Below are positions 49,884-64,000 of a stretch of 64,000 bases of DNA, piece after piece. The stretch is from Pedobacter metabolipauper (GTDB lineage: Bacteria > Bacteroidota > Bacteroidia > Sphingobacteriales > Sphingobacteriaceae). The notes under the pieces are model-generated. The model made no database searches and was not told the DNA's origin. It saw nothing but the letters and a program-made list of their open reading frames with translations. The stretch covers positions 1,179,601 through 1,243,600 of the forward strand of contig NZ_SNYC01000003.1 in the NCBI RefSeq assembly GCF_004362715.1, read 5' to 3'. The position numbers and the translations under genes are program-made. Every line of letters begins with the position of its first letter. Position 1 is the stretch's first letter.

Positions 49884-52052
49884 ATGAATAAGAAAACCTT
49901 ATTTTTTACTTCACTATTGGCGCTCGGAATAGTTCAGTCAGGTTATATAGCACGCGAAGAAGGGATGTTTCCTTTAAGCGAGATCAGTAAACTTGATTTA
50001 AAGAAAGCTGGCCTGAAGATCGATCAAAATGAGATCTATAACCCAAATGGTACGAGCCTGGTAGATGCCCTGGTCAATGTGGGCGGCTGTACCGGTTCAT
50101 TCATTTCTGATGCAGGATTAATCATCACCAACCACCATTGTGCATTCAGTGCAGTTCAGCTTGCCAGCACACCTGAACACGACTACCTTAATGATGGTTT
50201 TGTAGCAAATTCTTATGAACAGGAAATTGAAGCAAAGAATTTAACCTGCCGGATTACCGACAGTTATGAAGATGTTTCAGACCGGGTACTTGGTGCTGTA
50301 GCCCAGATTGAAGATCCGGCATCGAGGTTAAAATTAATCAATGATGTGATGAAAAACATAGTTGCTGAAGCGGAGAAAAAGGATCCTGGTATTAAAGCCG
50401 AAGTTTCAGAAATGTTCATTGGAAAGACCTATGTACTGTTTCGGTATAAAACCATCCAGGACGTAAGACTGGTCTATGTTCCAAACCGGCAGATTGGTGA
50501 GTATGGCGGAGAGACCGACAATTGGGTATGGCCGCGTCACACTGGCGACTTCTCTTTTATGCGTGCTTATGTAGCGCCTGATGGATCTCCGGCTAAATTT
50601 TCAAAGAATAACGTACCCTATAAACCTAAGAAATTCTTAAAGGTAAATCCAAAAGGGACCACTGAAGAAGATTTTGTGTTTATACTCGGCTATCCTGGTA
50701 AGACATTCCGCCACCGTCCAGCTGAATTTATTGCCTACCAGCAAAAATATCTATTGCCTTACGTATCCGATCTTTATGAATTCCAGAATACAACTTTTGA
50801 GAATATAGGTAAAAGAAATAAGGCTACGGAACTCAAACTAGCCACCAGAATTAAACGCAATGCAAACACCTTAAAGAACTACAGAGGAAAATTACAAGGT
50901 CTTAAAGGAATAGATCTTATTGCGCAGAAGAAACAGGAAGATGCGGGCTTAGCAGAATTTATCAATAGCAATGTGCCCATAAAAGAAAAATACGGCACAT
51001 TGATGACCGATATTGACAATTTGTATCAAATGATAAATGGAGATGCCCAAAGGGATCTTTGGTTTGCACAGATCTACAATTCAACCAGTTTGCTCACCGT
51101 CTCTAAAAATTTAAACAGCTTTAAAACTGAATTGGACGCACAGCCGATTGCACAGAAGCAGGATTACTTTGATAAGAATATCACCAAATTAAAGCAAACT
51201 TTAAATACTACTTACGAAGCATACGATATTGAGGCAGACCGGCGCATCTTTAAAAGGATGCTTACGGATGCAGCGGCACTCAGTATGAACCAGAAAGTAA
51301 CTGCTGTTAATAAAGTTACCAGTAAAGGATCTAATAGTACTGCTGCAATTGATGAATACATAGAAAATACATTTGGATTAACCCGGCTTAAAGACCCGGA
51401 TTATGTAATGAACACCCTGCTTCAATCACCAAGGTCAATAGCAGCCTATAATGATGGGCTATTGTTATTTGAGAAAGACCTGGCGAAACAGGTATTAGAG
51501 CTTAAACCAGAAAAAGACCGCAGAGAAGGGATATTAAATAAACTGATGGGCGACTATGTAAATGTAAAGGAGAAATTCCTGAAAAAGGATTTCGTTCCGG
51601 ATGCAAACAGCACGCTCAGATTAACCTATGGGTACGTTAGGGGATATTCTCCTGCAGACGCGTCCTACATGCAGCCTTACACCAGCATCAAAGGAATATT
51701 GGAGAAAGGAACTACAGGAAATCCTGATTTCGCCTATCCTGCCCAAATAAAAACATTATGGAATGCAAAGGACTTTGGGACTTTTGCCAAAAAAGAGCTG
51801 AATGATGTTCCAGTATCATTTCTATACAATATGGATACTACCGGAGGCAACTCAGGCTCTCCGATCATGAATGCAAATGGTGAACTGATAGGTGTAAATT
51901 TTGACCGTGCTTACGGTGCTACCATCAATGACTATGCATGGAATGAAAGCTACAGCAGATCTATCGGAGTAGATATCCGTTATATATTATGGGTAGCTTC
52001 TAAAATTGATAAAGCAGATTTCCTGCTTAAAGAAATTGGCATCAAACTTTAA
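49884..52052 (+). CDS. S46 family dipeptidyl peptidase, predicted Asp/Glu-specific (DPP11-like)
   Basis: This 722-residue exported peptidase has a signal-like N-terminus (residues 1-20). The catalytic His is in NHHCAF (H85), the Asp region in TDNWVWPRHTGDFSFMRAY, and the nucleophile S657 in GGNSGSP. R675, 18 residues after the Ser (VNFDRAYG), aligns with Arg673 of P. gingivalis DPP11, which selects acidic P1 residues; DPP7 has Gly there. The enzyme removes dipeptides from peptide N-termini in the periplasm. Confidence 0.92.
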   Translation: MNKKTLFFTSLLALGIVQSGYIAREEGMFPLSEISKLDLKKAGLKIDQNEIYNPNGTSLVDALVNVGGCTGSFISDAGLIITNHHCAFSAVQLASTPEHDYLNDGFVANSYEQEIEAKNLTCRITDSYEDVSDRVLGAVAQIEDPASRLKLINDVMKNIVAEAEKKDPGIKAEVSEMFIGKTYVLFRYKTIQDVRLVYVPNRQIGEYGGETDNWVWPRHTGDFSFMRAYVAPDGSPAKFSKNNVPYKPKKFLKVNPKGTTEEDFVFILGYPGKTFRHRPAEFIAYQQKYLLPYVSDLYEFQNTTFENIGKRNKATELKLATRIKRNANTLKNYRGKLQGLKGIDLIAQKKQEDAGLAEFINSNVPIKEKYGTLMTDIDNLYQMINGDAQRDLWFAQIYNSTSLLTVSKNLNSFKTELDAQPIAQKQDYFDKNITKLKQTLNTTYEAYDIEADRRIFKRMLTDAAALSMNQKVTAVNKVTSKGSNSTAAIDEYIENTFGLTRLKDPDYVMNTLLQSPRSIAAYNDGLLLFEKDLAKQVLELKPEKDRREGILNKLMGDYVNVKEKFLKKDFVPDANSTLRLTYGYVRGYSPADASYMQPYTSIKGILEKGTTGNPDFAYPAQIKTLWNAKDFGTFAKKELNDVPVSFLYNMDTTGGNSGSPIMNANGELIGVNFDRAYGATINDYAWNESYSRSIGVDIRYILWVASKIDKADFLLKEIGIKL

Positions 52053-52061
52053 TCTAAAAAC

Positions 52062-52313
52062 ATGAGAGTACTCGCAGAATTACCACATCCCGAATGCAAG
52101 ATCACCCTGTTTAATATGAACCAAAAATACATCGTTAAATTTGAACAGGGAACATTGGAACAAAGCTATAAATTGTCTGAACTTGACCTCAGTGGAGGAG
52201 GGGCAAATGAGATCTTTCAAATCCTGGATGAAGAATTTATAGCTACTGTTGTCGCTCGCTTTAAGGAGATGAGAACAGATTTTTCTGCAGCTTATAACAG
52301 GCAGCAGTATTAA
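52062..52313 (+). CDS. Small conserved hypothetical protein
   Basis: This 83-residue cytosolic protein (MRVLAELPHPECKITLFNMNQK...) has an alternating beta-type first half and a C-terminal helix. I recall similar short proteins in Sphingobacteriaceae but no named domain. It starts 9 bases after the S46 peptidase stop and is probably on the same transcript. Confidence 0.7.
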   Translation: MRVLAELPHPECKITLFNMNQKYIVKFEQGTLEQSYKLSELDLSGGGANEIFQILDEEFIATVVARFKEMRTDFSAAYNRQQY

Positions 52314-52636
52314 TTGATAAAGATCATGATAAAATGCTGTTATACAGCTTCTTTTATTGTAATTCAGAATAATATTCTGCAATTACGAAGAATTTCAATA
52401 AACAGATCCAGCCACAAAAGAAGTTAAGGTTTATTACAGAGTAAATAAAGATTCTGATAAACAAATGATTATGATATAACACAAAACATTATTTTGAGGC
52501 TTAAAACTGCCAAATAAATGGGAGATTTAAGGGATTAAGGTTCAAAATTGGGTATTTTAAATACCTGCTAAACTAAGGATCTAATAACCGATATTTTATT
52601 GATATTTGCATATGATCCGATCATTAAAATTTTAAC
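52314..52636. other. Intergenic region (323 bases)
   Basis: No gene is seen. It holds a hairpin at 52359-52386 (GTAATT and CAGAATA arms pairing with TATTCTG and AATTAC around one base, with a single bulge), possibly a terminator or RNA structure, and a weak -7-like GATATTTG at 52601-52608, upstream of the lipoprotein start at 52637. Confidence 0.5.
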
Positions 52637-53197
52637 ATGAGACAAAAAATATTTGTACTGCTCCAGCTGACCGCCTTAATCTTACTGACCTTTTCCTCCT
52701 GCAATAAAGTAGAAGATTCATTAACCAGGGATGTGATCGTCAATCCGCAAAGTATAGAATATACCATTCCAATTATCAGTAATACAAATTCAAATGCAGC
52801 AATGGGAGAAGTAAATATTCCTATTGATCTGGACGCATTGATTAAAGATCAGGCACCCGGCTTTGGAACAAATTCGGTAACAAGTGCAAAATTGACCGGC
52901 ATTAAAATTGACCTGGTAGATACCTTGTTAACAGCAAACAACTTTGCCAACCTGGAGAACATTTCGGTAAAAATTGAAACCGCTTCGCAAACGCTCAATA
53001 ACGCAGCCACCTTAAGTAACCCGGATGTAAAAAACGGCACACTAAGAATACCTGTAATGGTAACAGATACTGATGTAAAAAATGTACTGAAGGAAGCACC
53101 GGTAAAATTCATTTTAACTGGTAAGGCAAGAAGAGTAACCACAGTAACGCTAAAGGCAAAGATCAGTACTACGTTTACTGTTACTGTTGAACGGTAG
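52637..53197 (+). CDS. Lipoprotein of unknown function
   Basis: This 186-residue precursor has a signal peptide ending in a lipobox (LLTFSSC, Cys about 22). The mature part is beta-rich with regular Val/Thr/Asn spacing (VKIETASQTLNNAATL). No domain is recognised. It may be a surface-exposed lipoprotein. Confidence 0.75.
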   Translation: MRQKIFVLLQLTALILLTFSSCNKVEDSLTRDVIVNPQSIEYTIPIISNTNSNAAMGEVNIPIDLDALIKDQAPGFGTNSVTSAKLTGIKIDLVDTLLTANNFANLENISVKIETASQTLNNAATLSNPDVKNGTLRIPVMVTDTDVKNVLKEAPVKFILTGKARRVTTVTLKAKISTTFTVTVER

Positions 53198-53205
53198 TGC
53201 TTACA

Positions 53206-53236
53206 TTTGATTTTTGGCTAAATTTTAGTATATTTG
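53206..53236 (+). promoter_or_regulatory. Promoter of the 61-residue protein gene
   Basis: TTTG at 53206-53209 and TATATTTG at 53229-53236 are separated by 19 bases, matching both Bacteroidota elements. Transcription would start near 53241, leaving a leader of about 200 bases before the ATG at 53443. Confidence 0.65.
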
Positions 53237-53280
53237 CATAAAACGGGGTATCATTATACTATTTCTCTTATAATTACTTG

Positions 53281-53301
53281 CCAGCCAATATATATGGCTG
53301 G
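53281..53301 (+). promoter_or_regulatory. Leader hairpin
   Basis: CCAGCC (53281-53286) pairs with GGCTGG (53296-53301) around an AT-only loop in the long leader. A 27-codon reading frame (53294-53377) begins in the loop. It may be a temperature- or protein-responsive element; this is inference. Confidence 0.4.
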
Positions 53302-53442
53302 GTTCATTTTCTCCTGGTTGCTGATCCGTTGCCACCCGAGAATTATTATATTCAGACACATCAATGCAGCACATTGAACTTATAAAGACTGAACAGGTAA
53401 AAGCAGAGAAAAGTTATTTATTTAACTAAATACATTGAACTT

Positions 53443-53628
53443 ATGGCTAAATCTCAGGCTACCTTCATGAAGAAGCAACTAGAAAAAAACCGACAAAAGA
53501 AAAAAGAAGATAAAGAACAACGCAAGCAGGAACGTCAGCAAAACTCATCAGGAGGAGACCTGGAAAGCATGATGGCTTACGTAAACGAATTTGGGGAGAT
53601 TGTCTCTACCCCGCCAGAAAAAAAATAA
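53443..53628 (+). CDS. Small basic conserved protein
   Basis: This 61-residue protein is rich in Lys, Gln, Glu and Arg (MKKQLEKNRQKKKEDKEQRKQ) and ends with a conserved acidic segment (MMAYVNEFGEIVSTPP). I recognise it as a short Bacteroidota protein usually encoded beside cold-shock proteins; no csp gene is adjacent here. It is likely to bind nucleic acid or ribosomes. It has its own promoter and terminator. Confidence 0.75.
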   Translation: MAKSQATFMKKQLEKNRQKKKEDKEQRKQERQQNSSGGDLESMMAYVNEFGEIVSTPPEKK

Positions 53629-53659
53629 TAAAAGCCGCCCCCGAGCGGCTTTTATTATT
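53624..53659 (+). terminator. Intrinsic terminator
   Basis: A perfect 15-bp stem (AATAATAAAAGCCGC at 53624-53638 with complement at 53645-53659) has a 6-base loop and a T-rich 3' arm. It overlaps the stop of the 61-residue protein gene. Confidence 0.92.
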
Positions 53660-53730
53660 TAAATCTGTTTTGTAGCTATTGGAATATCTATATCATCCGG
53701 ATAGCTATAAATCTATATGCATTATACACC

Positions 53731-54897
53731 TTACTTTCTAACTGCTTTTTCCCAGATTACAGACTGTTCTCCAAAAAAGTACCTGTGTAATCCGGCAAGG
53801 ACGGCATAGTTCATCATACAAAAATAGTAGGGGACAAAAAGCAGCTTTACACGAACCTTTTTATCCTCCAGTACTTTACCTAACCAGGCGGATAGATAAA
53901 ACAGGATCTGTCCGCCAAAAATACATCCGTACACAATAGAAGGATTGTTCAATACAATGATCAGGTTAAGTATAAAAGCGGCAATCATTAAGAACGGTGT
54001 AATGGTCCATCTTAATACGCGGTGACTAACGTATTGAAAGGATAATACCGGAAACTGAAATGGGTTAAGCAATGATTTTAGCCAGATTACAGACTGGATC
54101 CCTCCTGCTGCAATTCTTACTTTGCGCTTTAATTCTTCTTTAATATTTGCAGATGAGGTTTCCTGTGCATAAGCCTCAGGTTCATAAACGATCACATACC
54201 CCTTTTCTGCAATCCGCATAGAGATCATAAAATCATCCAGGACACTATTAACAGGCACTGGCACATACAAGCTTTTGCGGATACTGAATAATTCTCCCGC
54301 GGCACCAACAACGGAATAAAGCTCCGAATCCCAGGCTTTAAGCTTCGATTCATATTTCCAGTAAAACCCCTCTCCGGCAGTAGCATCTGCTGATGCATCA
54401 ACCATTACCCGCTTTTCTCCGGCAATAGCACCAACATTTTCATCCGCATAATGACGGCAGATCAAGACCAATGCATCTGCATTTAAAAATGTATTGGCAT
54501 CTGTAAACACAATAACTTCTGAAGTTACCTGTTCAATAGCCCGGTGAACGGCCGAGATCTTACCCTTCCGCTCAGGGGCATGAAGCAATTTGATCTCCGG
54601 ATATTTCGCAACCAGCTCATTGGTCCCATCAGATGAGCCATCTGTTACAAAGACCAATTCCAGCTTTCCTGCAGGATAATTCAGCTCCAAAGTGTTTTTA
54701 ATTTTCTCATCAATGAAATCAGCTTCATTGTATGCAGCAACAATGAGTGTACATGATGGCAGGCTATTAAAATCATATTGCTTTCTTTTTGAGGTTTTAA
54801 TGATCCTTTTGATCCGAACCATAAGATACAACAAGATACCGTAACCGAAAAAAGTATAAAAAACGAGGAATATTGCTATCCAGAATGAAATGATCAT
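53731..54897 (-). CDS. Glycosyltransferase family 2, membrane-bound
   Basis: This 388-residue protein has an N-terminal TM (FWIAIFLVFYTFFGYGILLYLMV), a GT-A catalytic domain (LIVAAYNEADFIDEKI, FVTDGSSDGTNEL, FTDANTFLN, with VLDDFMISMRIAEKG and later QVRRW-like substrate loop) and C-terminal TM segments. This is the processive or undecaprenyl-linked GT2 layout of exopolysaccharide synthases. The start of the next gene lies 2 bases before its own start on the minus strand. It should act at the inner membrane. Confidence 0.88.
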   Translation of the reverse strand: MIISFWIAIFLVFYTFFGYGILLYLMVRIKRIIKTSKRKQYDFNSLPSCTLIVAAYNEADFIDEKIKNTLELNYPAGKLELVFVTDGSSDGTNELVAKYPEIKLLHAPERKGKISAVHRAIEQVTSEVIVFTDANTFLNADALVLICRHYADENVGAIAGEKRVMVDASADATAGEGFYWKYESKLKAWDSELYSVVGAAGELFSIRKSLYVPVPVNSVLDDFMISMRIAEKGYVIVYEPEAYAQETSSANIKEELKRKVRIAAGGIQSVIWLKSLLNPFQFPVLSFQYVSHRVLRWTITPFLMIAAFILNLIIVLNNPSIVYGCIFGGQILFYLSAWLGKVLEDKKVRVKLLFVPYYFCMMNYAVLAGLHRYFFGEQSVIWEKAVRK

Positions 54898-54899
54898 AA

Positions 54900-55814
54900 T
54901 TATTTTAAAGTAAAGCCTAAATGTTTGCTGTTTATCGGATTTTTAATGTTCCAGCCAATTGCACGGAAAAGTACCGGGATAAAAGAAGATGTCCGGTCTG
55001 CAAGGTATTTCAGAATATTGCGGGGAGTTACAAAGCATAAAAAGTAACTGTAAAAAAATAGTTTATGGTGCAGATCTGCATTGCGCCGTATAAATAAGAT
55101 CCGGTTACGGTTCATAAAATACTCCTTTAATGCGCTGTTCTTTCCTACTGCCAGCGATTCTTTGTGATAAATCAGCGCATTGGTATTGATCCAGATCTCA
55201 AAACCGGCACGTTTTATTTTTTCACACCAGTCCATCTCTTCATAATATAGAAAATAATTCTCTTCCATCAGCCCTGCCTGCTCCAAAGCCTTTCTCGTAA
55301 TCATCATGGCTGCACCATGTATATATCCTGTGGGCTCCGCTTTACCGGCATACTGTCCTTTGTCGGTCTCAAATTGACCAATGCAGGCATTGCGGCAGGT
55401 ATAATAGTTCATCGGTGTAAAACCAGCATATTGAATGGTGGCTTTGCTGTCGTAATAATTTATTTGAGGAGAAACAATCCCAATCGTGGGATTATGATCC
55501 AGCGTAGCAGATAACTCTTCTAAAATACCAGCTGTAAACTCAGTATCATTATTCACCAGAAACAGGTATTCTCCGTTCGCCTGTGTAATCCCTAAATTGT
55601 TCCCTCCTGCAAAACCCAGATTCTTTTCTGAACGTATGTAGTTTACCCGGTGTATATTACTTGTAAAATAAGTTTTGTTATCTGCAGCACTTCCATTATC
55701 AACTAAAATAATCTCTATATTAGCTTTTGGATAATACAGATCAATGGATTTAAGCAATGCCAGTGTAGCCTCAGGCTGGTTAAAATTTACAGTTACAATT
55801 GATATTAAACCCAT
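54900..55814 (-). CDS. Glycosyltransferase family 2 (rhamnosyltransferase-like)
   Basis: This 304-residue GT-A enzyme opens with ISIVTVNFNQPEATLALLKS and has the family-typical ILVDNGSAADN, RSEKNLGFAGGNNLGI, LFLVNNDTEF and YEEMDWCEKIKRAG. It resembles the soluble rhamnosyl- or other hexosyltransferases of O-antigen clusters. It lies 42 bases from the divergent signalling operon and is paired with the membrane GT2. Confidence 0.9.
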   Translation of the reverse strand: MGLISIVTVNFNQPEATLALLKSIDLYYPKANIEIILVDNGSAADNKTYFTSNIHRVNYIRSEKNLGFAGGNNLGITQANGEYLFLVNNDTEFTAGILEELSATLDHNPTIGIVSPQINYYDSKATIQYAGFTPMNYYTCRNACIGQFETDKGQYAGKAEPTGYIHGAAMMITRKALEQAGLMEENYFLYYEEMDWCEKIKRAGFEIWINTNALIYHKESLAVGKNSALKEYFMNRNRILFIRRNADLHHKLFFYSYFLCFVTPRNILKYLADRTSSFIPVLFRAIGWNIKNPINSKHLGFTLK

Positions 55815-55856
55815 TTATTAGTTAAACTTTTACAAACACCATCAAAATAGCATATT

Positions 55857-56399
55857 TTGACCGACAAAAAGAAACTTACTGACGATTTAAAAAGTTTTGA
55901 ATCCCTTGACGTTAAGGATGAGGTCTTGATGGAAAAGCTTCAGGAATTTATCATTTTGCTTGAAAAGAGCGAGTTAGACTCCCAAAATGTAAAAGGAATT
56001 AAGACCAGGATTGATAAAGTATTAGACGAAAAATTAGAAGGAAAAGAACTCATCAGGAACATTCGCGAAGTCAGTTCCGCATCCATGAATAAGCTCGACC
56101 AGCTGGACCAGCTGGAGATCTTATTGGCCAACAACCATTTTGATTCAGCAAATGCCAAAAGCAACCGTTTCAAATTAGGAATGTATAAAGGGATAAAAAT
56201 TGTAATTGGCTTTTTATTTATTACCTTGGGTTTTGCAATGATTATAATGCCTGCCCCTCCTTATTTTGAAATGTTTGTTATTTTCAACTTTAACTGGGAC
56301 GATGGCTTTACATTAATGGATCTGATTTCTTTAATTATAATTGCGGTAGGGATATATATTATTATTAAATCTGTATTTAACATAAAAACTGATGAATAG
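55857..56399 (+). CDS. Two-TM coiled-coil membrane protein, first gene of the signalling operon
   Basis: This is a 180-residue protein if started at the TTG at 55857; ATG at 55929 is the alternative. A cytoplasmic, acidic/Lys-rich helical region (about 1-110, coiled-coil-like) is followed by two TM segments (about 112-133 and 150-172) and a very short tail. It overlaps the next gene by 8 bases, so it belongs to the relay operon. It may anchor or sense for the module; no known domain is recognised. Confidence 0.7.
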   Translation: MTDKKKLTDDLKSFESLDVKDEVLMEKLQEFIILLEKSELDSQNVKGIKTRIDKVLDEKLEGKELIRNIREVSSASMNKLDQLDQLEILLANNHFDSANAKSNRFKLGMYKGIKIVIGFLFITLGFAMIIMPAPPYFEMFVIFNFNWDDGFTLMDLISLIIIAVGIYIIIKSVFNIKTDE

Positions 56400-57516
56400 A
56401 ACCATCTTGTTGGTAGATGATGACATTATTCAACTGAGACTGTTTGAAAAATTACTCACATCTAATGGCTATTCGTGCAGAATCGCATTATCAGTTGATG
56501 AAGCTGAGCTGATCCTGAAAGAAGAAACCCCGGATCTGATCATCTCTGATTATGAAATGCCCGTAAGGAATGGCTTTGAATTCAGAAGGCACCTGCTTAC
56601 TGAAGAAACGTATAAGAACATTCCATTCTTATTTCTAACATCAGTCAACGACCATGACTTTGTACAGCAAGGGCTGGATTTAAAAGCGATTGATTACATC
56701 ACAAAGAATACCCCTCCTACACATGTATTGTCAAAAATAGATAACCTGCTCCAGGCAGTACGCGAACACTATGAACGCTCACTCGGTGAAATTAAGGGAA
56801 TAGCGGAGAAATTAAACTTAAGGAATATTCCTAAAAAGGCGCCAGTACTAAAGAATTTTTCTATTAGCTATTTCAACCAGTCCTTTCAAAACCAGCCGGG
56901 CGGAGATTTCATAGACTTTATTAAGGTCAATGACCGGTATACATTTATTGTACTTGGTGATGTAATGGGTAAAAAATGGGGTGCCTGGTTTTTTTCTTTT
57001 AGTTTCTTAAGCTATATTAGGTCTGCCATTAGATTGTGTGTATTTGATGAAAATTATTCACTATCACAGATTATGAATAAGCTGAACCGGGTAATCTATG
57101 CAGACGAGCTTTTAGGCGAAATATTTTCAACACTCAGCATCGTCCTTGTAGATGATGAACTTGGAACTATAAAATATGCAGGTGCCGGAGATCTTCCGCT
57201 CCTGAAGTTTGAGAAGGACAGTGAAGGATTAAAACCTTTTAAATCTGATGGTATATTACTGGGATTTGCGGAACATGGAAATTACAACGAAATAGACATA
57301 GCGATGGGTGAGGAAGAAGAGATCTATTTAATTTCTGACGGCATGATCGATTTTGAGGTAGATGGAAAAAAACGATCTGATCTTAAATTATTCGAAGAAA
57401 AGCTGTTTAACCTTAAAAAAAATAAGGTAACAGCAGATGAGATAAAGAACAATTTATTCAACAAGCACGTTTCTCAGGTAGACGACTGCAGCATTATTAT
57501 ATTAAAAAAAATCTAA
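56392..57516 (+). CDS. Receiver-PP2C (SpoIIE-type) phosphatase, HsbR/RsbU-like
   Basis: This 374-residue protein has an N-terminal receiver domain (D53 phospho-acceptor in IISDYEMPV, T83, K105), a linker helix at about 120-145, and a PP2C/SpoIIE phosphatase domain with metal-binding residues D172 (PGGDFIDF), D190 (VLGDVMG) and a later Asp in YLISDGMIDF and VDDCSIII. Such proteins dephosphorylate a STAS antagonist when their receiver is phosphorylated, as RsbU and HsbR do. The downstream gene supplies the STAS protein. Confidence 0.93.
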   Translation: MNRTILLVDDDIIQLRLFEKLLTSNGYSCRIALSVDEAELILKEETPDLIISDYEMPVRNGFEFRRHLLTEETYKNIPFLFLTSVNDHDFVQQGLDLKAIDYITKNTPPTHVLSKIDNLLQAVREHYERSLGEIKGIAEKLNLRNIPKKAPVLKNFSISYFNQSFQNQPGGDFIDFIKVNDRYTFIVLGDVMGKKWGAWFFSFSFLSYIRSAIRLCVFDENYSLSQIMNKLNRVIYADELLGEIFSTLSIVLVDDELGTIKYAGAGDLPLLKFEKDSEGLKPFKSDGILLGFAEHGNYNEIDIAMGEEEEIYLISDGMIDFEVDGKKRSDLKLFEEKLFNLKKNKVTADEIKNNLFNKHVSQVDDCSIIILKKI

Positions 57517-57851
57517 TGGACATTACAAAACAAAACATCAATGATGTTTTATTAATTACTATTGAAGATAAAGATGCCAACCTATCCAAATCAGAACATT
57601 TTAAGGAGCAGGTACTCAATGAAATTACCCTTGGTGCAAGAAAATTGATCGTATCCTTTGAACGGGTAGAATATATTGACAGTTCATTTCTGGGCGCCAT
57701 GGTTGCCATATTGAAGAACTTACTGCCACAGGATGGTAAACTAGTACTTATAGAACTTAATAGTGATATCAATAACTTATTTGAACTTACCCGGCTTGAC
57801 AAGATCTTTGATCTAAAAGATTCTCTTGAAACAGCCCTAAAAGAATTTTAG
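57516..57851 (+). CDS. STAS-domain anti-sigma-factor antagonist
   Basis: This 111-residue STAS protein (LLITIEDKDANLSKSEHFK, VEYIDSSFLGAMV) carries the conserved DSS motif; S56 aligns with the phosphorylated Ser58 of SpoIIAA. The start overlaps the upstream stop by one base. It should be the switch partner of the following ATPase-like protein. Confidence 0.9.
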   Translation: MDITKQNINDVLLITIEDKDANLSKSEHFKEQVLNEITLGARKLIVSFERVEYIDSSFLGAMVAILKNLLPQDGKLVLIELNSDINNLFELTRLDKIFDLKDSLETALKEF

Positions 57852-58379
57852 ATGAAATTCCTGCCTGTAACTATAGATCTGGAGATCCCGAACGACATTG
57901 ATAAGCTATATGATTATGCAAAAAGGGTATTGGCAAATATCCTTGAGCATGTTGAATTGGATGTATCACAGCAGCAAAGAATTAAACTTATACTTGTTGA
58001 ACTGGTAACCAATTCAATCAAACATACTTCAGATCCAAATACCCAGCTTCAACTGATCATTGATCATCCGCATTTAAGTATCCAAAAAATGGAGAAAGGC
58101 CTTCAAATACAGTTTAGTGCCTCTTCACCGCAAATTCCATTTGAAAATATAGACCATATCCTGAAAATTAGTTTCTCACAGGAAAATAAACACCAGATCC
58201 AGCCCTTAGATCAATATCGGTTCAGATTTCTAAATCCATTCAAAGATGAAGGTCTCAGTATAGATCACATGCCAGAACATTTTGGATTGTACATTATTAC
58301 CCTTGCATCGGATAGTTTCATTTATCAATACGACCCTCAATTAAAGGAAAACAGGTATATTGTAAATATTGACCTGTAA
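57852..58379 (+). CDS. RsbW/SpoIIAB-like serine kinase (ATP-binding region ATPase)
   Basis: This 175-residue GHKL-type protein shows the N-box (LILVELVTNSIKH, E50/N54) used by anti-sigma kinases. The later motifs are degenerate and the region between the N-box and the C-terminal HFGLYII segment is long, so kinase activity is not certain. It abuts the STAS gene with no gap. In the partner-switch model it would hold a target (unknown here) unless bound by the unphosphorylated STAS protein. Confidence 0.75.
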   Translation: MKFLPVTIDLEIPNDIDKLYDYAKRVLANILEHVELDVSQQQRIKLILVELVTNSIKHTSDPNTQLQLIIDHPHLSIQKMEKGLQIQFSASSPQIPFENIDHILKISFSQENKHQIQPLDQYRFRFLNPFKDEGLSIDHMPEHFGLYIITLASDSFIYQYDPQLKENRYIVNIDL

Positions 58380-58414
58380 TTACAATTTTTGGCACAGCAC
58401 TCACTACGTAGAAA

Positions 58415-58436
58415 ATATTCCCCAATAGGGGAATAT
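58415..58436. promoter_or_regulatory. Palindrome ATATTCCCC-AATA-GGGGAATAT
   Basis: A perfect 9-bp inverted repeat (58415-58423 and 58428-58436) with a 4-base loop lies 36 bases after the relay operon and 132 bases before the LruC gene. There is no U-run after it, so it looks more like an operator or RNA element than a terminator. Confidence 0.5.
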
Positions 58437-58567
58437 GACCCTACTAAAAAAGAACATTAAAACCAGAAATCCCCATTCTTTTACAGCATATGCCCCCTTT
58501 TATTCTGGCATTATTTTCAAGTACATAAGCTGATACTTAATCATTATTTAATTTCCCGCTCAGCTTT

Positions 58568-60646
58568 ATGAACAAGAACTTACTCTTAATTACACTCAGC
58601 ACTGCCTTCCTTTTTCTTATCGGATGTAAAAAAGAAATATCCGGAACTGAAGATCCATCTAAAGTAGCAGGAGAAAAAGTAGCTCCTGATGGCTTTGCAT
58701 ATCAAACCACTAAAAAGGTTGATATTGATGTTAGGCTATTGAGCCGTAATGATAAACCGGTTACCGGAGTATTGGTTTCTTTATACGATCCTGCCAATCC
58801 GATTATTGGAAAAGAGATCACTAAGGTTATGAGTGATAAAAATGGATATATCAGAACAAGTATCGTGGTCCCTTCATCATTAGATACCATAATTATAGAT
58901 CCTGCTTATGTAGGGTTAATCCGTAATGCAAAAGCTTACATACAAAACAATAGCCTATCTGCTATTATTGGTGGTCAGCAGGGATTTAGCGGAAATATCG
59001 TCATACAGAAATCAGTTGCAGAATCAAAGAAATTAAGTTATGTAATGAGTTCGGGCATAAGTTCAATTGGTAAAAACGCAGATAATGCAGCAGCATATAT
59101 GTACAGCACTGGTGATTATGATGCACTAGGCAGGCCAAAAAACTTAGAACCGGTAGATAATATTGATTTTTCTGAATTGATGAAACAAATCAATCATGCA
59201 CTTCCTGAAAGACAAGCCGTAAAAGAAAAATACATCGCTACACAAGTTCCTTCAGACCTTAGAATTGAAAAATTAGCAGACGTATGGATCACCTTCGTAC
59301 ATGAAGGTGCAGATTACAGAAACTCTTTTGCCTATTATACCTACCCTACCGCTCAAAAACCTACCAAACCAGAAGACATTAACGATATCCATTTAATATT
59401 CCCCAATGCATCCCTTAAAGGTGCTGTTGGTGAAGGCAACATGCTGCAAGGAGATAAAGTTAAGATTGGAAGATTTCCAGCAGGAACCTCTATAGGATTC
59501 GTGTTACTGCAGGATGCTTACAGGGGATCTGGCGTTATAAATTATGGCGCAACCAAATTCTTCTCAACAGAAGGCCTTAACCCTGAAACCGACAACCGCT
59601 TAAAAAGACATAACGTTGTTTTAAACAATGTTGCTCAAAAAACATTCCTGATTGGTTTTGAAGACATCAACAGAATGCCAAACCAGGGAAGTGATCAGGA
59701 TTTTAACGATCTTGTGGTATATGCACAGTCTAATCCGGTTGAAGCAATTTCACCAGTTGATGTTCCTTTCCTGGATGAAGACATTGTTGATACAGATTCA
59801 GATGGTGTACCAGACTACTTAGACAAATATCCGAAAGATCCTGAAAGAGCTTATGATCGTTATTACCCAAGTGAAGATGTATGGGGAACTACAGGTTTTG
59901 AAGACATGTGGCCATTAGAAGGTGATTACGATCTGAATGACCTGGTAATAAGCTACCGCTATAAGTTTGCAATGAATTCAACAAACTTTGTAGTAGACAT
60001 GACCGCTGAATACAAACCACTTGCTGCCGGTGCTGAATTTCAGAATGGATTTGGTGTTCAATTACCGATCCTTCCCGGACAAATAAAAAATGTTACCGGG
60101 ATGAATATATCCGGCAATTACATCAAACTTGACAGTAAAGGTTTGGAAAGCAATCAGCGTAATGCGGTTATAATACCTTTTGACAACTACAGGAATCTAT
60201 TTGGAGCAGGTACAGGATATATAAATACACGCCCAAATACCGCTAAAATCGAAAGTGACGCAGTAACACTTCTACTTACATTTAACAGTCCTATTGATGA
60301 TGAATTTACCGCATCGGCACCATTTAACCCGTTTATGATCAGTAACCTGGAACGTGGCAAAGAAGTCCATTTGGTAAATCATCAACCAACAGATCTTGCA
60401 AATATTAAATTGCTGAAATCTGCAGCAGACGATTCTGATGCAGGTTCCGGACGGTATTACATCACCAGGGAGAACAGGCCATTTGCACTCGACTTCTTCG
60501 GACCTTTTAACTACCCGCAAGAAAGTGTATCAATTACAGACGTTTATCTTCATTTTTCAGAATGGGCAAGATCAGGCGGATTAAAATATCCGGACTGGTA
60601 TGAAAACTATAACGGCTATATCAACACCAAACTTATTTATAAATAA
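58568..60646 (+). CDS. LruC-domain lipoprotein
   Basis: This 692-residue precursor has a lipobox (FLFLIGC, Cys near 20). It contains an N-terminal region (about 60-190) with a CRD-like beta fold, then DINRMPNQGSDQDFNDLVVYA and, after about residue 395, a calcium-type thrombospondin-3-like repeat (DTDSDGVPDYLDKYPKDP) and the LruC core (GTTGFEDMWPLEGDYDLNDLVISYRY). LruC proteins are surface lipoproteins in Leptospira and Bacteroidota; the function is unclear. It precedes the O-acylation locus by 8 bases and may share its transcript. Confidence 0.88.
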   Translation: MNKNLLLITLSTAFLFLIGCKKEISGTEDPSKVAGEKVAPDGFAYQTTKKVDIDVRLLSRNDKPVTGVLVSLYDPANPIIGKEITKVMSDKNGYIRTSIVVPSSLDTIIIDPAYVGLIRNAKAYIQNNSLSAIIGGQQGFSGNIVIQKSVAESKKLSYVMSSGISSIGKNADNAAAYMYSTGDYDALGRPKNLEPVDNIDFSELMKQINHALPERQAVKEKYIATQVPSDLRIEKLADVWITFVHEGADYRNSFAYYTYPTAQKPTKPEDINDIHLIFPNASLKGAVGEGNMLQGDKVKIGRFPAGTSIGFVLLQDAYRGSGVINYGATKFFSTEGLNPETDNRLKRHNVVLNNVAQKTFLIGFEDINRMPNQGSDQDFNDLVVYAQSNPVEAISPVDVPFLDEDIVDTDSDGVPDYLDKYPKDPERAYDRYYPSEDVWGTTGFEDMWPLEGDYDLNDLVISYRYKFAMNSTNFVVDMTAEYKPLAAGAEFQNGFGVQLPILPGQIKNVTGMNISGNYIKLDSKGLESNQRNAVIIPFDNYRNLFGAGTGYINTRPNTAKIESDAVTLLLTFNSPIDDEFTASAPFNPFMISNLERGKEVHLVNHQPTDLANIKLLKSAADDSDAGSGRYYITRENRPFALDFFGPFNYPQESVSITDVYLHFSEWARSGGLKYPDWYENYNGYINTKLIYK

Positions 60647-60654
60647 CGCGTACC

Positions 60655-62091
60655 GTGTTATTTAACTCTCTCAGTTTTGCCTTTTTTTTACCAACAGTAT
60701 TAATTCTTTACTGGCATTTTACGAAAAGTAACTTGAAGCTACAGAACATCCTTCTGTTGATTTCAAGTTACTTTTTTTATGCCTGCTGGGATTACAGGTT
60801 TTTATTCCTTCTTATCTTTTCTACCCTTCTTGATTATTTTACGGGTATTAAAATGAGTGAAGCAAAGAGCCAAACATCAAAAAAAATATGGTTCTGGATC
60901 AGTATTGTAATTAACCTTGGCTTTTTAGGCGCGTTCAAATATTTCAATTTCTTTGTAAGCTCATTTTCTGAAGCGATCTCCATGCTGGGTTTCCAGATCA
61001 ACCTGGAAACACTTAAATTCATTCTGCCGGTTGGCATTTCCTTTTACACGTTTCATGGATTATCCTATGTTATCGACATTTATAAGAACAGGATAGAGCC
61101 GGAAAGAAACTTTGTCACCTATTCTCTCTTTGTTAGCTTTTTCCCGCTCCTGGTTGCCGGGCCTATAGAACGGGCCACCCACCTGTTGCCTCAAATTAAA
61201 AGGCAAAGAACATTTAACTATGCTAAAACGATTGACGGACTCCGGCAGATCCTCTGGGGACTATTTAAAAAAATAGTGATCGCTGATAATTGCAGTGAGT
61301 ATGCCAATTATATCTTCAATGACAGCGGCCACCATTCAGGAAGCACCTTAGTTTTGGGTGCACTCCTTTTCACTTTTCAGATTTACTGTGATTTTTCAGG
61401 GTATTCAGATATTGCATTGGGTACGGCCAGGCTTTTTGGGATCGAATTGTTAAAGAACTTTTCCTTTCCCTACTTCTCAAGAGATATCGCAGAATTTTGG
61501 CGTCGCTGGCACATTTCCTTATCTACCTGGTTTAGAGACTATCTATACATCCCATTGGGTGGAAGCAGAGGTGGGATACCAATGAAGGTTAGAAATACAT
61601 TCATCATATTTATCGTAAGCGGTTTTTGGCACGGAGCCAACTGGACCTTTTTGTGCTGGGGGTTTTTAAACGCCCTTTACATCATGCCATCCATCCTGTT
61701 CAGCACGAACAGAAGCAATCTTGATACGGTTGCCCAGGGTAAATACTTACCCTCTTTCAGAGAGCTGACAGCGATGCTCCTTACATTTGGATTAACGGTG
61801 TTTGCATGGATTATTTTCAGGGCAGAGAACATCAGCCATGCCTATCAGTATATCAAAGGAATTTTTTCCAGGTCGCTATTTACAGTACCAGACATCCTGC
61901 CTAAAACAGTATTGATCTTAACAGGAGTATTCATGCTGATGGAATGGTTTGGCAGGGAGCAGCAGTTTGCCATTGCACGTGCTGGCGCAGGATGGCCAAG
62001 ACCATTAAGGTGGGTATTCTACCTGGTTCTGGTTCAATTCATCATTTTCTATGCCGGTAAAGAACAACAGTTTATTTATTTTGAATTCTAG
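60655..62091 (+). CDS. MBOAT family O-acyltransferase (AlgI/DltB-like)
   Basis: This 478-residue inner-membrane enzyme has about 11-12 TM segments. The family motifs are WRRWHISLSTWFRDYLYIPLGG (residues 282-303) and SGFWHGANWTFLCWG with the catalytic His H326. The N-terminal MLFNSLSFAFFLPTVLILYW is typical of AlgI homologues. It transfers acyl (usually acetyl) groups across the membrane onto exported polysaccharide. It is followed 3 bases later by an SGNH protein, matching the AlgI-AlgX/AlgJ pairing. Confidence 0.93.
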   Translation: MLFNSLSFAFFLPTVLILYWHFTKSNLKLQNILLLISSYFFYACWDYRFLFLLIFSTLLDYFTGIKMSEAKSQTSKKIWFWISIVINLGFLGAFKYFNFFVSSFSEAISMLGFQINLETLKFILPVGISFYTFHGLSYVIDIYKNRIEPERNFVTYSLFVSFFPLLVAGPIERATHLLPQIKRQRTFNYAKTIDGLRQILWGLFKKIVIADNCSEYANYIFNDSGHHSGSTLVLGALLFTFQIYCDFSGYSDIALGTARLFGIELLKNFSFPYFSRDIAEFWRRWHISLSTWFRDYLYIPLGGSRGGIPMKVRNTFIIFIVSGFWHGANWTFLCWGFLNALYIMPSILFSTNRSNLDTVAQGKYLPSFRELTAMLLTFGLTVFAWIIFRAENISHAYQYIKGIFSRSLFTVPDILPKTVLILTGVFMLMEWFGREQQFAIARAGAGWPRPLRWVFYLVLVQFIIFYAGKEQQFIYFEF

Positions 62092-62094
62092 CCT

Positions 62095-62922
62095 GTGAAA
62101 GATCTATATATTAAATTGTCCTTTTTCATCTTATTATCCGCGATCATTTATCACATTAAGCCTTTATACTTGTTTTATAATGACAGGTATATGGAAACCG
62201 TGGCAGGAAAAGAAATTTATCACGCCATCCATAAAAGTAAGTCTAAGAATAAGTGTAAAAAACTATTGTTAGGTGATAGTGTTGCAGAGCAATTATTTAG
62301 TAACGAAACCGATCATGGAAACACAACCTCATTAGCTACCAATGCGGCAGTTACCATGGCAGGGCAATTCTTTCTTTTAAATAATTATCTGAATGCAGGC
62401 AATAAAATTGACACGGTATACCTGCTTTTCAGACCTTTAAGCTTCGGAAAGAATTTGGATGAGCAATTCACTTATCATTATTTCTTAAAACCATTTTACA
62501 ATCAGGAATACATTCCTTTATTTACTAAAACAGCAATACAGCAAGCTGAAAAAATACCTTATGCCCAGTTCTGCAGTTACCCAACTTTTTTAACCACAAA
62601 CTGGGCACCCGATTTTGTGTCGAAAGACAAAAACAAGTTCACATTCCTGTCACCGATATCTGTTGAATATTTACAAAAGATCCAGCAGCTGGCCAGCCTT
62701 AAACATTTTAAGTTTATCATACTTTCTACACCAATGAGCCATATTTTCAAACGGAAAATAGCAGCAATGAATCAGCAAGAGATCACAGAATATGGCCTTC
62801 AAAATGAATTTGGAGACTATTTCAAATCAATCACCTATCTTAACGACAGTAACTTTGTGGATAATATTCATTTGAAAGACCCGGTAGCCTATCGGACACA
62901 TTACAAACAAGAAATCAATTAA
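62095..62922 (+). CDS. SGNH-like acyltransferase/hydrolase (partner of the MBOAT)
   Basis: This 275-residue protein starts with GTG at 62095. An N-terminal hydrophobic segment (KLSFFILLSAIIYHI) anchors it; the catalytic Ser is S62 (LLLGDSVAEQLF), and D256-x2-H259 (DNIHLKD) gives the other two residues of the SGNH triad. It probably completes polysaccharide O-acetylation in the periplasm, like AlgJ/AlgX. The next gene starts 39 bases later. Confidence 0.8.
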   Translation: MKDLYIKLSFFILLSAIIYHIKPLYLFYNDRYMETVAGKEIYHAIHKSKSKNKCKKLLLGDSVAEQLFSNETDHGNTTSLATNAAVTMAGQFFLLNNYLNAGNKIDTVYLLFRPLSFGKNLDEQFTYHYFLKPFYNQEYIPLFTKTAIQQAEKIPYAQFCSYPTFLTTNWAPDFVSKDKNKFTFLSPISVEYLQKIQQLASLKHFKFIILSTPMSHIFKRKIAAMNQQEITEYGLQNEFGDYFKSITYLNDSNFVDNIHLKDPVAYRTHYKQEIN

Positions 62923-62961
62923 ATAATATACAGAAGCGGGAAATACTGATCATTATTTGCT

Positions 62962-64000
62962 ATGAAATACATTAAACAATTAAACAGCCTAAGGGCAATT
63001 GCTGTGATCCTCGTGATCGCATCTCATTGGCTTGCGGCAACCCATATTTTAAATACATTGCCCTTAGGGCAAATGGGTGTTGATATATTTTTTGTTCTAA
63101 GCGGATTTCTGATCACCTCCATATTACTTCAAAATAAGGAACTGGCAGAACAGGAACAGTTATCAAAAGTCAAAGTGCTAAAAGTTTTTTACTGGCGCAG
63201 AACACTACGGATCTTTCCAATTTATTATCTTACCATTACGATCCTCTACCTGATCGGAGAAAATACAGGTACAGATATCCGTTCTTCTATCGGCTATTTT
63301 TTAACTTACACATCTAATTTCTATTTCTTTAATATTTCAGCCTGGGACGGTCTTTTGTCTCATCTATGGTCACTTGCCGTAGAAGAACAATTCTACCTGT
63401 TCTGGCCGTTTCTCATGCTGTATATCAACAGTAAATACCTTAGACCAATGATCTTTATCTTTATTGCCGTTGGGATTGGAAGCCAGTACCTCTTGCAGGA
63501 TGTACCCATGAACAGGATCTTAACCATAACCTGCTTTGATGGATTTGGACTTGGCGCATTGCTTGCCTGGCAAATCAGATATAGATCAATCAGCAAGCTT
63601 TATATGGTACTCAGTGTGGCCTGCATGGTTGCCGTCGCCGTTTTCTGTTTCGGCGTATATCAAAAGCAATGGACATTTATTCCATTGAGAACATTGATAT
63701 CGATTATCTCCCTGTGGATAATTCTATACATATACCGGTATGAATCCTCAGATCAGTTGCGATTTAAATTTATCCTGAACAATAAGGTCTTAATCTTTCT
63801 TGGAAAGATCAGCTATGGATTGTATCTGTATCACAACATGATCCCGGTATTCCACAACCGGTTTTTAATCGGATACCTGGGGATTAATATCCCCGGTTAT
63901 TTTGGAAGCTATGAAGGCAAGATCTTCCAATTGGAAAACATTTGTCTGTTGATCGGAATATCCTGGCTGTCATTCGTGCTGATTGAAAACCCATTTCTAA
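62962..64000 (+). CDS. Acyltransferase 3 family protein, partial at right edge
   Basis: The frame opens at an ATG at 62962 and stays open for the last 1039 bases, so the C-terminus is cut. QLNSLRAIAVILVIASHW (catalytic His region), GVDIFFVLSGFLIT, RRTLRIFPIYYL and SHLWSLAVEEQFYLFWP are the OafA/YrhL signatures, with about ten TM segments. It should O-acylate surface sugars, and ends the locus that begins with the MBOAT gene. Confidence 0.92.
   Translation, partial: MKYIKQLNSLRAIAVILVIASHWLAATHILNTLPLGQMGVDIFFVLSGFLITSILLQNKELAEQEQLSKVKVLKVFYWRRTLRIFPIYYLTITILYLIGENTGTDIRSSIGYFLTYTSNFYFFNISAWDGLLSHLWSLAVEEQFYLFWPFLMLYINSKYLRPMIFIFIAVGIGSQYLLQDVPMNRILTITCFDGFGLGALLAWQIRYRSISKLYMVLSVACMVAVAVFCFGVYQKQWTFIPLRTLISIISLWIILYIYRYESSDQLRFKFILNNKVLIFLGKISYGLYLYHNMIPVFHNRFLIGYLGINIPGYFGSYEGKIFQLENICLLIGISWLSFVLIENPFL

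What the first reader, a model, noticed from the sequence alone, without database searches (positions are those of the whole stretch)
55857..58379. Compact four-gene membrane / receiver-PP2C / STAS / RsbW-like relay next to surface glycosyltransferase genes
Four genes overlap or abut at every junction (8, 1 and 0 bases), so they act as one unit. They encode a two-TM coiled-coil protein, a receiver-PP2C phosphatase, a STAS antagonist with a switch serine (S56) and an ATPase of the anti-sigma kinase class. This is the parts list of a partner-switching system like RsbUVW or HsbRDA, but no sigma factor or diguanylate cyclase is adjacent and the ATPase looks degenerate after the N-box. Two GT2 genes are divergent 42 bases away, which suggests, as inference, that the target controls surface polysaccharide. 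The leading membrane protein has no family I recognise.
Basis: partly seen in the sequence, partly recalled or inferred. Interest (0 to 1): 0.65.

Follow-up and report, generated by a model that had tools for sequence, protein, structure and literature searches.

The report
Partner-switch cassette tied to polysaccharide locus
In Pedobacter and related soil bacteria, four genes forming a protein on/off switch travel as a block with two sugar-transferase genes, and an unusual membrane protein is the likely point where the switch controls building of a surface polysaccharide.

Summary
g1 (two-TM protein), g2 (receiver-PP2C), g3 (STAS, Ser56) and g4 (RsbW-type ATPase) lie at 55857-58379 with 8, 1 and 0 bp junctions. 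They form a real module: with the divergent GT2 pair they make a six-gene block, intact in 71 of 80 named genome loci from Sphingobacteriaceae, Chitinophagaceae and Dyadobacter. Of 201 family genomes, all 53 with full-length g2 also have g1, and 61 of 62 g1 copies sit beside the larger GT2 (the other is on a broken contig). The GT pair also occurs without g1 (48 genomes). Relatives place the block inside Wzx/Wzy-type polysaccharide clusters. Catalytic residues are conserved; g4 folds like SpoIIAB, so 'degenerate' is too strong. Two Mucilaginibacter genomes lost g2-g4 but kept g1 and the GTs: g1's membrane hairpin stayed about 82% identical while its cytosolic domain fell to 43-55% with a deletion (controls: median 72%, minimum 61%). 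I infer that the STAS protein acts on g1's cytosolic part, and g1 relays this to the glycosyltransferases without a sigma factor. Closest known: Vibrio SypE/SypA, whose STAS target is unknown. New variant of a known kind. The g1 step is inferred, not shown.

The parts
55857..56399 (+). g1: 180-aa protein; cytosolic helical domain (about 1-110) plus two-TM hairpin (about 113-172) with a strongly conserved loop 'MIIMPAPPYFEMF.IF.FN.DDG.TLMDLISL'
   Evidence: no Pfam/NCBIfam family above cut-off, no PDB fold match
56392..57516 (+). g2: receiver (Asp53) + PP2C/SpoIIE-type phosphatase, 374 aa
   Evidence: D53, D172, D190, D316 invariant in 94 of 94 orthologues
57516..57851 (+). g3: single-domain STAS protein, 111 aa, switch Ser56
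   Evidence: D55-S56 invariant in 95 of 95
57852..58379 (+). g4: RsbW/SpoIIAB-type serine-kinase/ATPase, 175 aa
   Evidence: E50/N54/H58/G145 invariant in 88 of 88
54900..55814 (-). GT305: GT2-family glycosyltransferase (rhamnosyltransferase-like), divergent, 42 bp from g1
53731..54897 (-). GT390: membrane GT2-family glycosyltransferase with weak resemblance to PgaC/IcaA
   Evidence: (PgaC_IcaA 4.5e-27, far below its equivalog cut-off)

Best explanation
This is a polysaccharide-locus partner switch with a dedicated membrane effector. A histidine kinase (not identified) phosphorylates the receiver of g2 at Asp53. This switches on its PP2C domain, which removes phosphate from Ser56 of the STAS protein g3; g4 is the opposing serine kinase. 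The free, unphosphorylated STAS protein leaves g4 and binds the cytosolic helical domain of g1. The membrane hairpin of g1 then changes the activity or assembly of the adjacent GT2 pair, and through it the output of a Wzx/Wzy-type surface polysaccharide. Shown here: the parts, the intact catalytic residues, co-inheritance, the polysaccharide context, and the erosion of g1's cytosolic domain where the switch was lost. Inferred: phosphotransfer, STAS-g1 binding, g1-GT contact, and the sign of control. I favour relief of inhibition, because lineages without the switch have lost part of the same g1 region and kept the rest.
For: Co-inheritance across 201 family genomes: g2 implies g1 53/53 (52 adjacent), and g1 lies beside GT390 in 61/62, the exception being a contig break. 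The six-gene block is kept in Chitinophagaceae and Dyadobacter, and a rearranged form in a distant family keeps g1, g3, g2 and a GT305 homologue together in a Wzx/Wzy-like cluster. Catalytic residues of g2, g3 and g4 are conserved, and g4 has the SpoIIAB fold. Loss of the switch: Mucilaginibacter G229 and G121 (L097, L098) and six genomes of genus g44 keep g1 and the GTs but have no full-length g2, no orthologous g3 and no g4 anywhere. In L097/L098, GT390 is 89-91% identical to switch-bearing sisters and the g1 hairpin 78-85%, but the cytosolic part is only 43-55% with deletions around the 'SIEAFKELD' segment. The 14 control pairs at 87-93% GT390 identity have a median of 72% and a minimum of 61%. 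G240 keeps g1+g3 beside the GTs while a g2-g3-g4 set lies elsewhere. No sigma factor is regularly nearby.
Against: No direct evidence of binding or phosphorylation. The clear erosion case is two close species, possibly a single event; in g44 the cytosolic identities fall within the background for that divergence. The GT pair occurs without g1 in 48 family genomes, so it does not need g1. The g1 model is only moderately confident (pLDDT 72.5, pTM 0.40) and matches no known structure. A sigma factor or other target elsewhere in the genome is not excluded.
Confidence: 0.5

Rival explanations
1. Canonical RsbUVW-type switch: g4 sequesters a sigma factor (or other transcription factor) encoded elsewhere, g3 releases it, and the block's polysaccharide genes are in the regulon. 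g1 is an accessory protein.
For: g4 has the anti-sigma-factor fold and g3 scores just above the anti_ant_sig superfamily cut-off. The genome holds about 60 sigma-70 region-2 matches, so a distant partner is possible.
Against: The nearest sigma factor is 53 kb away in the window and none recurs near the block. It does not explain why g1 is so tightly linked to g2-g4, nor why g1's cytosolic domain erodes when the switch is lost.
Confidence: 0.2
2. g1 is the input: a membrane sensor that passes an envelope signal to the receiver-PP2C g2, with the output elsewhere.
For: g1 is first in the operon and is a membrane protein with a conserved loop on one side of the membrane.
Against: g1 is kept next to the GT pair in 8 genomes with no g2, g3 or g4. 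A pure sensor for the switch would have no reason to stay, and g2 has its own receiver, which implies a histidine kinase as input.
Confidence: 0.2
3. The switch output acts directly on the glycosyltransferases or other assembly proteins, and g1 is a separate GT accessory subunit (PgaD-like) that is not the STAS partner.
For: g1 stays with the GTs without the switch; g1 and GT390 are both membrane proteins encoded close together.
Against: Cytosolic erosion and deletion in g1, but not in the GTs, after loss of the switch. g2 never occurs without g1 in the 201 genomes, although GT390 often occurs without either.
Confidence: 0.1

Closest known systems
SypE/SypA of Vibrio fischeri (syp polysaccharide locus)
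   Same: Receiver, PP2C and RsbW-type kinase activities act on a single-domain STAS protein with Ser56, inside a polysaccharide locus. The STAS protein is the downstream output and acts below transcription on an unidentified target (PMC10120452, PMC8256260).
   Different: SypE is one protein, whereas here Rec-PP2C (g2) and kinase (g4) are separate genes. A tightly linked membrane protein g1 and a GT2 pair are part of the unit. The passages read in those papers name no g1-like protein.
HsbR-HsbA-HsbD (Pseudomonas aeruginosa)
   Same: Receiver-PP2C-kinase acting on a STAS protein at Ser56, with a non-sigma output partner among its targets (PMC6482189). g2's best full-length PDB match is a two-component response regulator matched over both domains, 3eq2.
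   Different: HsbR is one polypeptide; its outputs are FlgM/FliA, RpoS and the diguanylate cyclase HsbD, none of which is encoded next to this block.
RsbU-RsbV-RsbW / SpoIIAA-SpoIIAB (Bacillus)
   Same: Phosphatase, STAS antagonist and GHKL serine kinase; fold and key residues match.
   Different: No sigma factor in the operon or nearby; different first gene; polysaccharide context.
PgaC/PgaD (poly-GlcNAc synthase)
   Same: A GT2 synthase controlled through a small inner-membrane protein (PMC8461298).
   Different: g1 has no sequence match to PgaD and has a large cytosolic helical domain; GT390 scores far below the PgaC cut-off; in PgaCD the control is by c-di-GMP.
HmpU/HmpV/HmpW (Nostoc punctiforme)
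   Same: Partner switch in a motility-and-polysaccharide locus with an unknown STAS target (PMC8256260).
   Different: Cyanobacterial. The locus layout was not compared here.

Membership tests
Partner-switching module (RsbU/V/W type) | PP2C phosphatase with metal-binding aspartates | tested here: met
   SpoIIE Pfam 1.6e-19; D172, D190, D316 in 94/94 and D364/D365 in 93/94 with one gap
Partner-switching module (RsbU/V/W type) | Single-domain STAS protein with phosphorylatable Ser after Asp | tested here: met
   D55-S56 in 95/95; STAS 8.1e-13
Partner-switching module (RsbU/V/W type) | GHKL serine kinase with RsbW/SpoIIAB fold and ATP-site motifs | tested here: met
   SpoIIAB E 1.7e-05, RsbW E about 3e-4; N-box and G2 glycine invariant; G1 Asp is Glu in the window clade
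Partner-switching module (RsbU/V/W type) | Phosphorylation of STAS by the kinase and removal by PP2C | not testable with these tools
   needs biochemistry
Sigma-factor partner switch (RsbW/SpoIIAB anti-sigma system) | Cognate sigma factor in the operon or conserved neighbourhood | tested here: not met
   nearest sigma factor 53 kb away; none recurrent in the fetched flanks of 140 g1 loci, sporadic cases only
HsbR/SypE/CrsR family | Receiver, PP2C and kinase on one polypeptide | tested here: not met
   g2 lacks the kinase domain and g4 is a separate gene in the 119 loci where all four were measured (domains)
HsbD / SiaD type output | Diguanylate cyclase gene in the unit | tested here: not met
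   none recognised among the ORFs at window 50000-64000 or among the recurring neighbours that were identified
SiaABCD | SiaB- and SiaC-family proteins | tested here: not met
   g3 and g4 hit classic STAS and HATPase models and no Sia-family model at E<=1
PgaD/IcaD | Sequence match to the PgaD family | tested here: not met
   window g1 has no such hit at E<=1; not among the 25 of 29 weakly matching families shown for 94 members
PgaD/IcaD | Physical complex with a GT2 synthase | not testable with these tools
   only single chains could be modelled

The most novel reading that the evidence does not exclude
g1 is the first identified effector of a STAS output in a polysaccharide locus: a membrane hairpin subunit that lets a serine-phosphorylation partner switch directly gate a glycosyltransferase complex, a protein-based counterpart to c-di-GMP control of PgaCD, spread as a six-gene block through Bacteroidota.
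Probability: 0.35. Interest if true: 0.8.

Novelty: new variant of a known kind. Interest (0 to 1): 0.58.

Why it matters
The direct targets of STAS outputs in polysaccharide systems (SypA, HmpV) are unknown (PMC10120452, PMC8256260). Here evolution supplies a named candidate target, a compact genetic unit, and natural loss cases that point to the contact region. If true, it shows a direct, non-transcriptional and c-di-GMP-independent way for bacteria to switch a surface polysaccharide on or off. I found no paper describing this module, within an open-access library only.

Tried and rejected
1) 'ATPase is degenerate': rejected as stated. Fold and most motifs are kept; only the G1 Asp is replaced by Glu in the window's clade. 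2) 'GT pair is inseparable from g1': rejected; GT390 occurs without g1 in 48 of 201 genomes. 3) 'G240 has a STAS without kinase or phosphatase': first read that way from the locus, then rejected, because a g2-g3-g4 set lies elsewhere in that genome. 4) Decayed remnants of g2-g4 in switchless loci: none found in the seven scanned. 5) PDB sequence and fold searches for g1: only coiled-coil noise and no fold match. 6) Weak Pfam hits of g1 relatives (Pox_I5, DUF2207_C, PGPGW) are treated as coiled-coil or TM noise; for the window protein DUF2207_C scores 15.8 against a cut-off of 33, for the others only E-values were seen. 7) Distance correlations show g1-g4 more tightly co-inherited (0.76-0.83) than with the GTs (0.60-0.70), but phylogeny confounds them, so they are not used as proof of contact.

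Full report
WHAT IS THERE. The four genes are at the stated places with the stated junctions. Pfam gives receiver + SpoIIE/PP2C for g2, STAS for g3 and HATPase for g4, and nothing above cut-off for g1. The window lies in a 5.25 Mb genome whose nearest named relatives are Pedobacter. The genus name is read from those relatives, because the window's own record is unnamed.

IT IS A REAL, CONSERVED UNIT. Relatives of g1 were found in 62 of 201 family genomes. In 38 of the first 41 loci read, the order g1-g2-g3-g4 is unchanged. Clustering of neighbours showed that the divergent GT2 pair is next to g1 in all 41. A named collection gave 80 further loci, 71 with all six genes in the same layout (many are the same genomes seen under names). 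These include Filimonas, Taibaiella, Parafilimonas and Dyadobacter; several of the nine exceptions are contig ends. Median spacing is 59 bp between g1 and GT305, and 2, 0 and 1 bp inside the operon. Across the 201 genomes, full-length g2 occurs in 53, always with g1 (52 adjacent). GT390 occurs in 110, including all 62 with g1; 61 of the 62 g1 copies are adjacent to it and the other is on a broken contig. So the implication runs one way: switch implies g1, and g1 implies GT pair, but the GT pair can stand alone.

CONTEXT. Recurring neighbours in relatives are a flippase (Polysacc_synt), Wzy_C polymerase/ligase, initiating sugar transferase (Bac_transf), hexapeptide transferase, GT1, GT11 and Branch glycosyltransferases. 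The window itself has an LruC-domain protein and an MBOAT acyltransferase downstream. Outside the family, one genus (G271, G357, G367) carries g1, g3, g2 and a GT305 homologue within about 11 kb in a Wzx/Wzy-like cluster in a different order. One genome (G544) has a 115-aa g1 with little more than the hairpin, in a cluster with polymerase, flippase and LruC-like protein. Functions of genes in these two distant clusters were read from sequence and were not run against a family library.

CHEMISTRY LOOKS INTACT. g2: D53 (receiver) and D172, D190, D316 (PP2C) are invariant in 94 of 94. g3: D55-S56 in 95 of 95. g4: E50, N54, K57, H58 and G145 in 88 of 88; the G1-box Asp is D in 74 and E in 9, including the window. 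That these positions are the metal ligands and kinase motifs is established knowledge of the families. AlphaFold of g4: pLDDT 90.5, pTM 0.87; best PDB matches are SpoIIAB and RsbW. g1: pLDDT 72.5, helices plus a hairpin whose loop is modelled as a short beta element, no PDB match.

NATURAL LOSS EXPERIMENT. Eight genomes keep g1 and the GTs with no g2-g4 orthologues: two Mucilaginibacter (G121, G229) and six genomes of genus g44; a ninth, G202, is a contig end. No decayed remnants were found in the seven of these loci that were scanned. In the two Mucilaginibacter, GT390 is 89-91% identical to close switch-bearing relatives and the g1 hairpin 78-85%, but the cytosolic part is 43-55% with 16-30 gap positions; in L097 a 14-residue deletion falls on the stretch around SIEAFKELD of the sister protein. 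Fourteen control pairs of switch-bearing loci at 87-93% GT390 identity have a cytosolic median of 72% and a minimum of 61%. In g44 two of five sequences have large deletions of the same region, but overall identities are within background there, so this supports rather than proves. I read this as: the cytosolic domain of g1 is what the switch touches, and the hairpin is what serves the glycosyltransferases. G240 fits: g1 and a STAS gene stay beside the GTs while a g2-g3-g4 set lies elsewhere.

EVOLUTION. On a GT390+GT305 tree the block's presence changes many times, at least 8 for the full switch on starred branches. The window's GT pair does not group with the GT-only pairs of its own genus (AU p 7e-55, quick LG+G4 tree, group chosen after the tree was seen). 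The block therefore seems to move or be lost as a unit; horizontal transfer or old paralogy both fit.

MECHANISM AND RIVALS. The most likely reading is a partner switch whose STAS output acts on g1 and so on the glycosyltransferases. The main rivals are a sigma factor elsewhere (nearest in this genome 53 kb away; none recurrent near the block) and g1 as sensor (disfavoured because g1 outlives the switch). Precedents from the literature: SypA is an output STAS protein with an unknown target that acts below transcription (PMC10120452); HmpV likewise has an unknown target (PMC8256260); HsbA binds FlgM, HsbR and the cyclase HsbD (PMC6482189); PgaD is a small membrane protein through which a GT2 synthase is controlled (PMC8461298).

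LIMITS. No interaction, phosphorylation or polysaccharide was measured. The paper library is open-access only. The best erosion case may be one event. The sign of control is a guess.

Noticed in passing
window 58568-60646: LruC-domain (DUF4842 + DUF4114) gene directly downstream of g4. Homologues recur near the block in 6 of 41 first loci (cluster 12), and a similar protein lies in the distant G544 cluster (L093 13761-15800).
   Followed up: partly
window 60655-62922: MBOAT acyltransferase (PF03062) followed by a 275-aa protein, an apparent polysaccharide O-acylation pair, next to the block.
   Followed up: partly
L205 8336-10407 (G240, Mucilaginibacter): A g2-g3-g4 set without g1 on a different contig from the g1-g3-GT locus of the same genome: a split system with two STAS paralogues.
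   Followed up: yes
L056 7507-8774 (Arcticibacter): g2 is broken into two frames (344 + 88 aa; stops inside the match) while the rest of the block is intact: sequencing error or recent inactivation.
   Followed up: no
L046, L049, L056, L068, L109 beside GT390: Large hybrid-kinase-like genes (about 500 and 1200 aa with receiver matches) sit beyond GT390 in Arcticibacter and Desertivirga: candidate input kinases.
   Followed up: no
L094-L096 g1 N-terminal regions: g1's cytosolic domain looks by eye like two copies of a roughly 40-residue helical motif (..LDE.L.LLE...L.SDDA..), clearest in the distant genus; the short G544 g1 has one copy.
   Followed up: partly
window 53731-55814: The window's GT pair falls in a different clade from the GT-only pairs of other genomes of its genus (AU p 7e-55), suggesting transfer or old paralogy of the block.
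   Followed up: partly
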